From Lachnospiraceae bacterium (GTDB lineage: Bacteria > Bacillota > Clostridia > Lachnospirales > Lachnospiraceae), in assembly GCA_017455525.1 (NCBI GenBank), contig JAFTAP010000074.1, forward strand, positions 1 to 44,008: a stretch of DNA of 44,008 nucleotides. Direction: 5' to 3'. The translations under genes and the position numbers were made by a program. Positions 2,112 to 38,646 of the stretch are shown piece after piece. Each line of letters begins with the position of its first letter. Position 1 is the stretch's first letter. Below the pieces are notes generated by a model. It did not search any database and had not been told where the DNA came from. It saw nothing but the letters and a program-made list of their open reading frames with translations.

Positions 2112-2548
2112 AGCATAGCGTCCTCGCCAATTTCAGAGAGGTATTCATCTGAATCAGGCAGGCTCATTTCTTTTTGAAGACAGTATAGAATGGCGGCATC
2201 CCTTCGGATTTTCGGATATAATACGCCACATTTTGCAAGTGTAAGAAACGTCTGAGTCTCTTCCACAGAAAGGTGAAGTGAAAAGGCTAAACGGAGAGCC
2301 ATATCTCTTCCGGGTAGCCTTTCTCCACTTAGGAACTGATAAAAATATGTCTTGCTGATAAAGGAATCCCGTATCAGTAAAGAAGCGGAAACGCCCCTTT
2401 TTTCCATCAAATCCTTTAAGTATTCTTGAAAGGTACGGTTATCTGCGGGACCGATATATTTCTCCTTGAAGCATTCCGGGGAAGCCTTCAGAACCCGCAG
2501 AAGCCCGGAGGTCGTCATGTCGTTTTTATTTTCTGAAGCTTCATTCAT
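2108..2548 (-). CDS. Small HTH (XRE-like) regulator
   Basis: 146-residue soluble protein with a predicted helix-turn-helix at about residues 55-95 (SLLIRDSFISKTYFYQFLSG), followed by helices resembling the tail of XRE/Cro-type regulators. It is convergent with the LRR kinase and the two stop codons overlap by four bases (2108-2111), so transcripts of the pair would be antisense at their ends. The pairing suggests a shared signalling role, but this is inference. The promoter (2555-2583) lies so close to the ATG that the message may be leaderless, and a perfect 7-nt-arm palindrome touches its -35 box, which would suit autoregulation. Confidence 0.65.
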   Translation of the reverse strand: MNEASENKNDMTTSGLLRVLKASPECFKEKYIGPADNRTFQEYLKDLMEKRGVSASLLIRDSFISKTYFYQFLSGERLPGRDMALRLAFSLHLSVEETQTFLTLAKCGVLYPKIRRDAAILYCLQKEMSLPDSDEYLSEIGEDAML

Positions 2549-2554
2549 GTTCTC

Positions 2555-2583
2555 ATATTAAATCAAGAAAGATTTGCTGTAAA
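2555..2583 (-). promoter_or_regulatory. Promoter of the small HTH regulator
   Basis: On the minus strand, -35 TTTACA (2583-2578) is separated by exactly 17 nt from -10 TAATAT (2560-2555). The ATG begins at 2548, only six bases beyond the -10 box, so transcription should start at or next to the start codon. No Shine-Dalgarno site is present. Confidence 0.55.
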
Positions 2584-2584
2584 G

Positions 2585-2599
2585 TCCGCAAATTGCGGA
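2585..2599. promoter_or_regulatory. Candidate operator palindrome in the regulator/GH5 intergenic region
   Basis: TCCGCAA-A-TTGCGGA is a perfect inverted repeat with 7-nt arms. It sits immediately upstream of the minus-strand -35 box and between two divergent genes. A looser inverted arrangement (AATCC 2603-2607 and GGATT 2617-2621) follows at once. Its position fits binding by the adjacent HTH protein; no experiment is implied. Confidence 0.45.
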
Positions 2600-2786
2600 A
2601 CAAATCCGTAATGCGTGGATTTATAATTGTTATAGTGAGATGCTTTTCAATTGCATATAATTTCTTCAATTGGAAATGAATTTCGTTTGCGGATGTGCAG
2701 CGTTGCAACTAGCTTTACATGCGTGCTTAACGGATTCGGACCGGGGCGGGAAATGTGTTTATTACAGTCGGAGGAGGAAGCGAACC
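2600..2786 (+). promoter_or_regulatory. Leader of the GH5-like lipoprotein gene
   Basis: A -10-like TATAAT is at 2656-2661 with no convincing -35 at 17 nt. The next 125 nt hold two TTCAATTG words (2646-2653 and 2665-2672) and end in a strong ribosome site, GGAGGAGGAAG (2770-2780), ahead of the ATG at 2787. No other gene is seen here. Confidence 0.35.
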
Positions 2787-4586
2787 ATGAATAGAAAAAT
2801 ACTGACAGGGATTTTAATTATAATAACAGTGTCAGTAGGCACAGGATGCGGCAATAAGGTTTTGACCGAGCCTATAGAAGCGGAAAGAGAGCAACAGGAA
2901 ACAATATCGGAGGCATCGACAGAGAGTCAGCCGGAGGAAGCCGCAAAGGAAACAGAAGAGATTCCTTTGATGGTCGAAAGGCTCAGCGAAGCTGCAATTA
3001 CAAATACAATTTCCTATGAAATAAAGAAAAAAGCTGAATCAATGCCGACAGCAACATATAAGACCCTGCCTGACTGGAATGGGACAACCATTGTTAACAA
3101 GATGGAATATGGCTGGAGAGCGGAGAATATTTCAGGAGATTACACCAAGGAAGTAATAGATGAGATTGCTGCTGAGGGTTTTAATTTTGTGCGTGTCCCC
3201 TTGGATACGCGGATATTTTATACGGACAGTACCGGTGAGCCGGGACCGTATTTTGAGGGAAACAGCGATATGGTAAATACAAAGGAGCTTAGGAACACAG
3301 ACGATATGATCTCATGGTGCATCGACAGAGGCATACACGTTTGCTTCGATGTACACAGCACGCCGGGCGGTTATATGATAGGCGGGGATGAGGAAGCTAG
3401 CAGAGAACTTCTTTTCACTGAGGGCAGCGATGAGGAGCAGTATTTCTTCGATTTCTGGGAGTTTTTCTCGAAGCGGTATGCGGATATCTCGCCAAATGCC
3501 CTTTCATTTAATCTTTACAACGAACCGCCCCAGTTTGTGACAGATGAGCAATACAGCTCCTTCATAAAGAAAACATTGTCGGTGACGACGCCGCAAAATC
3601 CTGATCGGATTATCTTTGTGGATATGTTAGGCTATGCCAGAGAGCCGGTATATGGGCTTGTGGGTGAGCCTGTGGCACAATGCTTCCATTGCTATGACCC
3701 GTATGATTTCACGCATTCGGGATTTGACAACATGGATTATGAGAGCGGAGAGGCAAACAGACGGAGCAATCACAGGGAAATAGTGACTTACCCTCTTCCT
3801 GCCATATATGCGGGATTGAACAAGGGGTACGTCGTAACAGGAGATTTCAAAGCGGGTACGAAGCTCACGATGGAGTTTTCCGGTGGCTCAATAGGGGCAG
3901 AATGCATCTTATCTGATGACAAAGGAAACGAGCTATGGTCAGAAACATTTGACAGGGCTTTGGTAGAGGAAAGAGGGCATGAGGTCATAGATGATAATTA
4001 TTTCTCCGGATATGAGGACGGAACCGAGGATATGATTGTAATAGAGTACGAGCTGACGGAAGATGTATCTGAGATAAGCTTCAAACTAAACAGTGATGAA
4101 GCGTGGCTTGATATGCAAAACCTGATAATAGAAACGGAAAACTACAAGGCGAAGCTTATAGCCCAATGGATTGACGGTATCATGGAGGATCTTCCGGGAA
4201 CGAGAGCCATGATAGACGAGCATGGGATAGTAAGGATCACTGAGCCCAATGCTTCAAAATATGATCAGGGAAGGGGAATATTTGAAGAGCAGTTTCAAAA
4301 ATATGTTGATTTTGCAAAAGAGGCGGATACTTCCGTCATGCTTCAGGAGTTTGGGGATACGGTATACACAGACATAAGCTGTGCAGAACGGTTTTATGAT
4401 GATATTCTCTCCGTCTGTGACGAAATGGGAATAAACTGGGTTCATTGGACGTTCGACGGAGGAGATTTTTCATATGTTGCGGCAGATGAGAAATATAAGA
4501 GGCACGACGCCACATACGAGGATTTAGGGAATGGCAGGGCGGTCTGTGTTGAAATGAGGAATATTTTCAAGGCTCACTGTAAATAA
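2787..4586 (+). CDS. GH5-like glycoside hydrolase lipoprotein with inserted domain
   Basis: 599 residues from the ATG at 2787, chosen because it has a strong ribosome site and begins a lipoprotein signal peptide ending in the lipobox VGTGC-G; a longer frame from 2670 has neither. A Ser/Glu-rich linker follows, then a GH5-type TIM barrel: acid/base Glu246 in LYNEPP, a substrate-binding CFHCYDPYDF strand, and nucleophile Glu521 in LQEFGDT, with WVHWTFDGGDF near the end. The two glutamates are 275 residues apart because a beta-rich module (about residues 336-450) is inserted between strands 6 and 7 of the barrel. It probably cleaves a beta-linked plant polysaccharide at the outer membrane face; the substrate cannot be read from sequence. 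Confidence 0.8.
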   Translation: MNRKILTGILIIITVSVGTGCGNKVLTEPIEAEREQQETISEASTESQPEEAAKETEEIPLMVERLSEAAITNTISYEIKKKAESMPTATYKTLPDWNGTTIVNKMEYGWRAENISGDYTKEVIDEIAAEGFNFVRVPLDTRIFYTDSTGEPGPYFEGNSDMVNTKELRNTDDMISWCIDRGIHVCFDVHSTPGGYMIGGDEEASRELLFTEGSDEEQYFFDFWEFFSKRYADISPNALSFNLYNEPPQFVTDEQYSSFIKKTLSVTTPQNPDRIIFVDMLGYAREPVYGLVGEPVAQCFHCYDPYDFTHSGFDNMDYESGEANRRSNHREIVTYPLPAIYAGLNKGYVVTGDFKAGTKLTMEFSGGSIGAECILSDDKGNELWSETFDRALVEERGHEVIDDNYFSGYEDGTEDMIVIEYELTEDVSEISFKLNSDEAWLDMQNLIIETENYKAKLIAQWIDGIMEDLPGTRAMIDEHGIVRITEPNASKYDQGRGIFEEQFQKYVDFAKEADTSVMLQEFGDTVYTDISCAERFYDDILSVCDEMGINWVHWTFDGGDFSYVAADEKYKRHDATYEDLGNGRAVCVEMRNIFKAHCK

Positions 4587-37256: not shown

Positions 37257-37331
37257 GTATTTTGTCGTATCAGTGAATCATTTGGTGTTTGGGACAATAG
37301 GTGCTTTTGAGCCCGACACTATCATATTCAG

Positions 37332-37520
37332 AAGGAGCCTGGTACTGTCCGCGAATGCGAAGCATGAGTGGGTAACAGTACTGGCATCCGGACGGACTAA
37401 GCCAGATATAAACTGGCGTTTATAAAGGAGCATGATACCGTTAGCGCCCGTACTTTGGGCGGTTACGGTATCAGCCCCGAACGGTGTAAGTCAGATAATA
37501 AACTGGCGTTTATAAAGGAG
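37332..37520 (+). ncRNA. Tandem pair of hairpin leader modules
   Basis: Two units of 93 and 90 nt each run from AAGGAG through a long hairpin to a near-identical tail ending ACTGGCGTTTATAAAGGAG (tails 37398-37430 and 37487-37520). Unit 1 stem: GGTACTGT 37341-37348 with ACAGTACT 37375-37382, inner ATGC-GAA-GCAT. Unit 2 stem: GATACCGT 37434-37441 with ACGGTATC 37465-37472, inner CGCCC/GGGCG. The two stems differ at two pairs in a compensatory way. The second tail provides the ribosome site of the reductase. Likely a structured 5' leader, class unknown. Confidence 0.6.
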
Positions 37521-37527
37521 AAAAAGT

Positions 37528-38646
37528 ATGGCTGTTGATGTAATTAAGATGCCTAAGCTGGGCTTTGGATTAATGAGGCTTCCCGAAAAGGACGGAAAGA
37601 TAGACCATGAGGAGACCTGCCGAATGGTCGATGCTTATATGGATGCGGGACTCAATTATTTTGATACCGCTTATGTCTATCATGGCGGGCTTTCCGAGGT
37701 GGAAGCAAGGGAAGCGCTTGTGAAGCGGTATTCACGAGATAAATTCATGCTTGCGACTAAGCTTCCCGCATGGGAGCTTAAAAATAAAGATGACAGGGAT
37801 CGCATATTTAACGAACAGCTTGAAAGAGCCGGAGTGGATTACTTTGATTATTACCTTCTTCATTCGATAGAGGACGGTAATATCGAGAAGTATGAAAAAC
37901 TTGACTGCTTTGACTGGGGCTTTAAGAAAAAGGCCGAGGGGAAAATAAAGCATTTCGGTTTTTCATTCCACGGAAGTCTGGATCTACTTGAAAAAGTCCT
38001 TGATGAGCATCCTGATATGGAGTTCATACAGATACAGTTGAATTATCTGGATTGGGACAATCCTGTGGTGCGTTCCGGAAAGGTATATGAGCTTGTGCAT
38101 AGCCGCAATATGCCCATGATAATCATGGAGCCTGTGAAGGGCGGCACGCTTGCAAGCTTAAAGCCTGAGCTTGAGGCTAAATATAAGGCGTTAAGACCGG
38201 AGGCTTCTATCGCTTCATGGGCTTTTAGATATGTAGCCTCGCTTCCCGGTGTCATGACGATACTTTCAGGCATGACACACGAGGATCAGATGCATGATAA
38301 CATCGAAACCTTTAAGAATTTTGAGCCTCTGTCGGATGCAGAGAAGGCTGTAGTAGAAGAAGTTACAAGGATTATGCTCGATATCCCGCAGATCGGATGC
38401 ACCGCATGTAAGTATTGCTGCGATGGATGTCCTATGAAGATAAGTATTCCTGATGTATTCAGGACTATTAACACTATGAATCTGTATAACGAGGAATTCC
38501 GCCCTAAGGCTTATTATAACGGTCTGGTGGAAGCAGGAATGGGCAGGGCATCCGACTGTATAGCCTGCGGACAGTGCGAGAGCGTATGTCCTCAGCATCT
38601 TCCGATTATAAAGCTTATGAAGGAGGCCGCTGCAAGGCTTGACTGA
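37528..38646 (+). CDS. Aldo/keto reductase with C-terminal 4Fe-4S ferredoxin domain
   Basis: 372 residues. The N-terminal aldo/keto reductase barrel has FGLMRLP, the catalytic-region NYFDTAYVYHGG, FMLATKLPAW and YYLLHSIEDG. The last 80 residues carry two cysteine groups (CTACKYCCDGCPM and CIACGQCESVCPQ) for iron-sulfur clusters. Such fused enzymes are common in anaerobes; the substrate is unknown. AAAGGAG lies seven bases before the ATG, at the end of the hairpin leader. Confidence 0.88.
   Translation: MAVDVIKMPKLGFGLMRLPEKDGKIDHEETCRMVDAYMDAGLNYFDTAYVYHGGLSEVEAREALVKRYSRDKFMLATKLPAWELKNKDDRDRIFNEQLERAGVDYFDYYLLHSIEDGNIEKYEKLDCFDWGFKKKAEGKIKHFGFSFHGSLDLLEKVLDEHPDMEFIQIQLNYLDWDNPVVRSGKVYELVHSRNMPMIIMEPVKGGTLASLKPELEAKYKALRPEASIASWAFRYVASLPGVMTILSGMTHEDQMHDNIETFKNFEPLSDAEKAVVEEVTRIMLDIPQIGCTACKYCCDGCPMKISIPDVFRTINTMNLYNEEFRPKAYYNGLVEAGMGRASDCIACGQCESVCPQHLPIIKLMKEAAARLD

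What the first reader, a model, noticed from the sequence alone, without database searches (positions are those of the whole stretch)
37332..37520. Tandem hairpin leader modules with compensatory base changes
Seen directly: two consecutive ~90-nt units share a near-identical 33/34-nt tail, while their hairpin stems differ. GGTACTGT/ACAGTACT became GATACCGT/ACGGTATC, so at two positions both partners changed together and pairing is kept. Conserved structure with changed sequence is the mark of a functional RNA. The unit ends in the ribosome site of the reductase gene, and because unit 1 also ends in AAAGGAG the duplication looks like copying of a whole 5' leader. No riboswitch class I know fits.
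Basis: partly seen in the sequence, partly recalled or inferred. Interest (0 to 1): 0.7.

Follow-up and report, generated by a model that had tools for sequence, protein, structure and literature searches.

The report
Mobile repeat landing on ribosome-binding sites
The two hairpin units are copies of a short, structured DNA repeat scattered dozens of times through this gut bacterium's genome, usually sitting exactly at a gene's ribosome-binding site and carrying a replacement for that site at its own end, so that the gene it lands in front of can still be translated.

Summary
The two units are real, but they are not a riboswitch-like leader duplicated in place. They are two copies, from two subfamilies, of a dispersed repeat of about 90 nt: 38 places at E<=0.01 in the window's genome, and matches in 21 of 48 congeners searched, three of them with 34-44. 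It also occurs in other genera of the family (8 of 396 genomes, own included). Anatomy: GGAG / C-hairpin 1 / linker with GUCAGA / hairpin 2 / GAGGAG. Of 119 copies assessed, 96 have an ORF start 3-16 nt after the terminal GGAG, 69 of these at 6-10 nt. Flanks read across the copy give A-GGAG-G, a Shine-Dalgarno (SD) sequence. Relatives carry the same genes without the element. Identical copies lie at unrelated loci. Both hairpins covary. Best reading: a non-autonomous mobile element that inserts in sense orientation after the GGAG of SDs and supplies a new SD. The mobilising enzyme is unknown: Y1 and IS110 transposases were looked at and not supported. No Rfam family matches it, and none of my ten paper searches showed a description.

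The parts
37334..37337 (+). GGAG to the left of unit 1; inferred to be the GGAG of the gene's original Shine-Dalgarno sequence
   Evidence: Sequence; left tag GGAG in 82 of 95 copies tabulated, preceded by A in 63 of 95
37334..37430 (+). Unit 1, CCTGGTAC subfamily (97 nt with both GGAGs)
   Evidence: R1 match 83.7 bits; closest copy L009 on C20
37339..37384 (+). Hairpin 1 of unit 1
   Evidence: Fold; covarying helix on A1
37401..37406 (+). GCCAGA of unit 1 (GUCAGA in most copies)
   Evidence: Alignments
37407..37424 (+). Hairpin 2 of unit 1 (UAUAAAC..GUUUAUA)
   Evidence: Read from the sequence; hairpin 2 supported across copies
37427..37430 (+). GGAG shared by the two units: right end of unit 1, inferred target for unit 2
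   Evidence: Sequence; same junction in tandem arrays of other genomes
37427..37520 (+). Unit 2, CATGATAC subfamily (94 nt with both GGAGs)
   Evidence: R1 match 114.3 bits; head 100% identical to L010 on C86
37430..37475 (+). Hairpin 1 of unit 2
   Evidence: Inverted repeat and fold
37490..37495 (+). GUCAGA of unit 2
   Evidence: Alignments
37498..37513 (+). Hairpin 2 of unit 2 (AUAAAC..GUUUAU)
   Evidence: Read from the sequence; family-level support
37515..37520 (+). AAGGAG, terminal Shine-Dalgarno of the element, now that of the reductase gene
   Evidence: 7 nt before the ATG at 37528
37528..38646 (+). Downstream host gene: aldo/keto reductase with 4Fe-4S domain (not part of the element)
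   Evidence: Pfam Aldo_ket_red 145 bits and Fer4_9 37 bits

Best explanation
A non-autonomous mobile repeat of about 90 nt. It inserts in sense orientation directly 3' of GGAG, mostly the GGAG of a gene's Shine-Dalgarno sequence, and carries GAGGAG at its own 3' end. After insertion the upstream GGAG belongs to the old site and the element's terminal GGAG serves as the new ribosome-binding site at normal spacing, so the host gene stays translatable and the insertion is tolerated even before genes such as tsf, nusA and gltX. Because the element ends in GGAG, it is itself a target, which gives tandem arrays such as the one in the window. Shown: dispersed copies with constant bounds, position at SDs in sense orientation, element-free relatives, identical copies in unrelated flanks, covarying hairpins. 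Inferred: movement by an enzyme acting in trans that recognises the hairpins (not identified); that SD enrichment comes from choice of GGAG plus selection against other sites; that translation is kept (only predicted).
For: 38 places in the own genome; 21 of 48 congeners searched. ORF start 3-16 nt after the terminal GGAG in 96 of 119 copies, against 19 of 118 on the antisense side. Flanks give A (63/95)-GGAG-G (52/95). tsf: no element in the 14 congeners printed. nusA: 6 of 7 relatives printed lack it, G231 reading GGGAGGAAGCAGTGAAATG at the site; gltX 5 of 7 and the second site of L030 6 of 6 lack it. Three pairs of identical copies in unrelated flanks. One close match (85%) between downstream genes of own and G212 copies. 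Host genes are unrelated: EF-Ts, NusA, Glu/Gln-type tRNA synthetase, carbamoyl-phosphate synthase, HPr, pantothenate kinase. Covariation. Predicted SD openness with the element 0.555, without 0.535 (P=0.51, 101 copies).
Against: No mobiliser found, and no longer form with a gene between the ends was seen in the fetched own-genome loci. 17 of 119 copies are neither at a start codon nor inner array units, so SD targeting is not strict. 7 of 113 excised sites lie in a stop-free frame of 500 nt or more. Empty sites come from species with diverged spacers; only the right flank aligns well, so the bounds are not proven to the base. G212 and G242 have degenerate or right-module-only forms at gltX and nusA, so some sites are shared or revisited, and own L032 and G212 L170 have copies before the same gene. 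Consistent sense orientation would also fit a regulatory leader.
Confidence: 0.84

Rival explanations
1. A cis-regulatory RNA leader (riboswitch, thermometer or protein-binding leader) that controls a regulon of some 40 genes per genome.
For: Sense orientation, position at the SD and covarying hairpins. The interior keeps the SD more open than a shuffled interior does (0.555 against 0.472, P=0.003).
Against: Host genes show no common theme and are rarely shared between species. 14 congeners lack it at tsf and 12 relatives of the reductase gene lack it. Letter-identical copies at unrelated loci. SD openness is the same with and without it. No Rfam match.
Confidence: 0.1
2. A member of the REP/RAYT system, moved as single-stranded DNA by a Y1 (HUH) transposase.
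For: A four-base tag at the 5' foot of a hairpin, many copies, strand-specific structure without terminal inverted repeats.
Against: No Y1_Tnp match in the own genome; none in 6 of 7 genomes with 7 or more copies, against 23 of 41 others with one (Fisher P=0.10, not significant; several are incomplete MAGs). Larger than REPs and located before genes.
Confidence: 0.08
3. A miniature derivative of an IS110/IS1111-type element.
For: All three highest-copy genomes have an IS110 match over the cut-off (13 of 48 genomes do), and in G212 it stands directly behind a copy.
Against: The G212 IS has its own inverted-repeat ends, unlike the repeat, and lies inside the copy's right end. Its 87% identical relative in G225 lies at the end of another gene, with no repeat beside it. 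The own genome's IS110 gene shows no DNA match to it; the ends of that one were not mapped.
Confidence: 0.03
4. A plain in-place duplication of the reductase gene's leader, with compensatory changes after the duplication.
For: Tandem units with a shared tail spelling that no other listed own-genome copy has.
Against: The rest of each unit is 98-100% identical to copies of different subfamilies on other contigs.
Confidence: 0.02

Closest known systems
REP elements and their Y1 transposases (RAYT/TnpA-REP)
   Same: Short dispersed palindromic units with a constant tetranucleotide at the 5' foot of a hairpin (PMC6006769 passages; PMC3733652 abstract).
   Different: REPs are 20-65 nt, tagged GTAG, GT[AG]G or CGTC, and lie predominantly downstream of genes. 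This unit is about 90 nt with two hairpins, tagged GGAG, ends in an SD and lies before genes; Y1 genes are absent from most high-copy genomes.
MITEs and small interspersed repeats such as BOX, RUP and SPRITE
   Same: Non-coding, structured, dispersed, variable internal modules (PMC3049150 passages).
   Different: MITEs have terminal inverted repeats and target-site duplications; here no terminal inverted repeat was found and the shared GGAG is constant.
Mobile/repeat sequence candidates (MRSC) of bacterial RNA surveys
   Same: Covarying structured motifs in dozens of copies, read as selfish elements (PMC11109978 passages).
   Different: Those are suspected above all when orientation to genes is inconsistent; this one is nearly always in sense orientation at the SD.
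IStrons, group B (IS607-type)
   Same: Insertion next to GG-containing sites and a device that makes the insertion harmless (PMC4227781 passages and start of abstract).
   Different: IStrons are group I introns that splice out of the RNA and encode transposase; this is about 90 nt, non-coding, and appears to work by supplying a new SD.
Rfam freshwater-2 RNA (RF02980)
   Same: The only match at E<=10 in the region, resting on the AAAGGAGAAAA..AUG tail.
   Different: 18 bits against a gathering score of 49.9, E=1.8; most of the second stem is not matched.

Membership tests
REP element / RAYT system | 5' GTAG, GT[AG]G or CGTC tag at the foot of a hairpin | tested here: not met
   The tag is GGAG in 82 of 95 copies tabulated; REP tags from PMC6006769 and PMC3733652
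REP element / RAYT system | Size of 20-65 nt | tested here: not met
   Units of 94-97 nt in the window; shortest full forms 73 nt in G052
REP element / RAYT system | Y1 transposase in the genome | tested here: not met
   0 matches in G000; 6 of 7 high-copy genomes without one; genomes partly incomplete
MITE | Terminal inverted repeats | tested here: not met
   Only inverted repeats in 37322-37530: one internal to unit 2 and one between the two tails
MITE | Target-site duplication | tested here: inconclusive
   GGAG on both sides, but constant; it may be element or target sequence
Cis-regulatory RNA / riboswitch | Conserved, covarying RNA structure | tested here: met
   does not tell RNA from single-stranded DNA
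Cis-regulatory RNA / riboswitch | Conserved association with particular genes or a pathway | tested here: not met
   Downstream genes diverse and rarely shared; relatives lack it
Cis-regulatory RNA / riboswitch | Ligand, temperature or protein response | not testable with these tools
   Needs probing and reporters
Known Rfam family | Score at or above gathering | tested here: not met
   0 matches in the window and in 20 loci with copies
IS110/IS1111 derivative | Ends shared with an IS110-type element | tested here: not met
   G212 and G225 IS ends differ from the repeat; the own genome's IS110 ends were not mapped
IS607-type derivative | IS607 transposase with matching ends | not tested

The most novel reading that the evidence does not exclude
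A new class of mobile element whose target is the Shine-Dalgarno site itself, chosen through single-stranded DNA or RNA by an unidentified enzyme or RNA guide, which spreads almost neutrally by replacing each ribosome-binding site with its own: a portable, self-inserting 5' leader.
Probability: 0.25. Interest if true: 0.9.

Novelty: new variant of a known kind. Interest (0 to 1): 0.62.

Why it matters
It shows how a selfish repeat could enter compact bacterial operons, even before genes for EF-Ts, NusA or a tRNA synthetase, without apparent loss of the host gene: it lands on the ribosome-binding site and brings a spare. If confirmed, the dozens of occupied and empty sites form a natural experiment on how 5' leaders tune translation, and they point to an unidentified site-specific mobilising enzyme. 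It also warns that a covarying structure before a gene, even one that ends in the SD, need not be a riboswitch.

Tried and rejected
In-place duplication as the full account: rejected, though the shared tail spelling points to local exchange. Known RNA family: no match at gathering, one weak match at E 1.8. H-type pseudoknot in the right module: considered by eye; its second half is missing in many G225 copies, so only hairpin 2 is kept. RNAalifold found no pairs on A2 and A6, where hairpin 2 varies in length, so pairing was tested within copies and with a named structure; one measure, further pair types, was weaker (43 of 500 shuffles as high). A5 holds two misplaced rows (L219, L228) and was not used for counts. 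Y1 transposase: not supported. IS110-type partner: promising because of the G212:C78 neighbour and because all three highest-copy genomes have a match over the cut-off; rejected on its ends in G212 and G225, not mapped in the own genome. Phage or plasmid carriage: no match of the window copies, no exact match of two right-end patterns in viral contigs. Papers: ten searches; no listing or passage seen describes an SD-targeting repeat. Most subscription papers are not held.

Rows dropped before counts: one G212 copy too near a contig end; 21 of 116 distinct elements not parsed for hairpin 2 and 32 of 116 for hairpin 1; 120 copies were listed, of which 95 met the conditions, 101 those and 113 those. 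Not all matches were fetched: 39 copies of G212 and 26 of G225 were used, while tallied 44 in each. One search printed 15 of the 30 tsf loci returned. The background used ORFs of 50 aa or more and includes the elements' own GGAGs; one search used 40 aa (25 aa where the contig ends).

Full report
Observation. The window carries two units joined head to tail between a radical-SAM gene (ending 37221) and an aldo/keto reductase gene with a 4Fe-4S domain (ATG at 37528). The 23-nt identical tail at 90-nt spacing, the hairpins and the quoted paired differences are there. Both units fold better than 200 shuffles (z -3.50 and -4.56). The bounds are GGAG 37334-37337, 37427-37430 and 37517-37520.

A dispersed repeat. 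A blastn search of the own genome (G000, 2.72 Mb in 110 contigs, 93% complete) gave 44 places at E<=10, the best other copies at 96% identity over a unit. A profile over the fetched loci found 33 copies, printed with flanks. A covariance model of 23 full copies (A1, R1) gave 38 places at E<=0.01. In the genus, 21 of 48 genomes match at E<=0.001: 34 in G000, 44 in G212, 44 in G225, 11 in G231, 10 in G203, 8 in G206, 7 in G235, fewer in the rest. In the family R1 matched 6 of 200 genomes and a sequence-only model of 38 diverse copies (R2) 8 of 396, in 8 genera, own included. In a class-wide sample 2 of 391 matched, the own genome and one of the same family. Relatives of the reductase gene come largely from gut MAGs, named Lachnospiraceae or Clostridia among the closer ones.

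Anatomy. From alignments and printed copies: GGAG; C; hairpin 1 in several subfamilies; a linker like GCATCCGACCGG; GUCAGA; hairpin 2 (UAUAAAAC..GUUUUAUA or UAAUAA..UUAUUA); GAGGAG. Hairpin 1 can be shortened, exchanged or carry extra palindromic modules. Tandem arrays share one GGAG between units in several genomes. In the window, unit 1 without its last 40 nt is 98.2% identical to a copy on C20 and unit 2 is 100% identical to one on C86, so two subfamilies are joined; the tail spelling TTTATAAAGGAG is shared by the two units and, among the 120 copies listed, only by one G225 copy, which suggests local exchange.

Structure. On A1 (22 distinct rows) 96.3% of cells pair, against 90.7% in shuffles; 7 of 21 pairs have two-sided changes (2 of 500 shuffles as high); the covariation score is 0.256 against 0.162 (0 of 500); slid structures score 0.080 or less; further pair types are less clear (43 of 500). 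The structure was derived from this alignment, which favours it against the slid versions. Pairing within copies exceeds pairing between copies for hairpin 2 (5.37 against at most 4.37, or 4.72 within genome groups) and hairpin 1 (7.35 against at most 6.96, or 7.18), 500 shuffles each. This does not tell RNA from single-stranded DNA.

Position. Of 119 copies assessed, 96 have an ORF start 3-16 nt after the terminal GGAG (own 27/33, G212 29/38, G225 21/26, others 19/22), 69 of them at 6-10 nt, the usual SD spacing. Six of the 23 misses are inner units of arrays. On the antisense side the figure is 19 of 118; for any GGAG in the own-genome loci 283 of 1325. Across the copy the flanks give A (63/95), GGAG, G (52/95). 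Seventeen copies are neither at a start nor inner units, and 7 of 113 excised sites lie in a stop-free frame of at least 500 nt, so GGAG, rather than the SD as such, may be what is recognised, with selection doing the rest. Host genes include EF-Ts, NusA, a Glu/Gln-type tRNA synthetase, carbamoyl-phosphate synthase, HPr and pantothenate kinase.

Empty sites and mobility. The spacer before tsf holds a copy in the own genome; 14 congeners printed have a spacer without one (tsf matched in 39 of 48 genomes). At nusA, 6 of 7 relatives printed lack it: G231 reads GGGAGGAAGCAGTGAAATG where the own genome has GGAG-element-GAGGAG-GAAGCAAGGAAATG; G242 has a right-module-only form. At gltX 5 of 7 lack it, G212 and G242 having degenerate or right-module forms; at the second site of L030, 6 of 6 lack it. 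Twelve relatives of the reductase gene lack it in the 180 nt upstream. Downstream genes of own copies show one close match among those of G212 (85%), a 32% match in G225, and a 96% match in G242 at a degenerate copy. Three pairs of letter-identical copies lie in unrelated flanks.

Effect on the host gene. Predicted openness of the SD is 0.555 with the element and 0.535 in the excised site (P=0.51, 101 copies), and 0.472 with one shuffle of the interior (P=0.003). The simplest reading is that the element keeps its terminal SD open and replaces the old one; this was not measured.

Mobiliser. Y1_Tnp is absent from the own genome and from 6 of 7 genomes with at least 7 matches, while 23 of 41 others have it (P=0.10). 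IS110-type genes over the cut-off occur in 13 of 48 genomes, including the three highest-copy ones, but the G212 one has its own ends and lies inside a copy, and its relative in G225 lies elsewhere. IS607-type recombinases, whose IStron relatives insert next to GG-containing sites (PMC4227781 passages), are an untested lead.

Comparison. REPs (PMC3733652 abstract, outline and passages; PMC6006769 passages), pneumococcal repeats (PMC3049150 passages) and mobile/repeat candidates of RNA surveys (PMC11109978 passages; PMC8632094 passages) are the nearest kinds. PMC2864571 was seen in passages. Term searches in a prokaryotic MITE review (PMC10969869) and in a RAYT paper (PMC2817692) gave no passage on ribosomes or SDs (the terms differed: the RAYT paper was asked for 'ribosome' and GGAG only). 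All other papers were seen in search listings. I found no report of a repeat that targets and restores SD sites in the ten searches named under Tried and rejected.

Verdict. It is a family of structured, apparently mobile repeats with an unusual habit: landing on ribosome-binding sites and replacing them.

Noticed in passing
L030:1286-1341 (also inside L032): Extra palindromic module of about 50 nt inside hairpin 1 that matches many other places in G206, G079, G216, G205, G231, G242 and G212 at about 81-95%: probably a second dispersed repeat family nested in this one.
   Followed up: partly
L029:1039-1194 and L034:1176-1312: Two copies share another extra module of two hairpins between hairpin 1 and the right module.
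   Followed up: no
L259 (G212:C78), about 2237-3899: An IS1111-like IS110 element (377-aa ORF, ends ATGAAGTGACC/GGTCACTTCAT) lies inside the right end of a repeat copy; an 87% identical element in G225:C28 lies at the end of another gene.
   Followed up: yes
L219, L226, L228: Right-module-only or other-hairpin forms of the element before nusA and gltX in G242 and G212, not found as full matches by R1: total copy numbers are probably underestimated.
   Followed up: partly
L103-L117, L120: Relatives of the window's reductase at about 40-47% identity in Methanobrevibacter records, mostly from gut samples, possibly a gene exchanged between gut bacteria and archaea.
   Followed up: no
L035:1253-1290 (-): A lone left hairpin of the CCTGGTACC type in the own genome without a right module beside it.
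   Followed up: no
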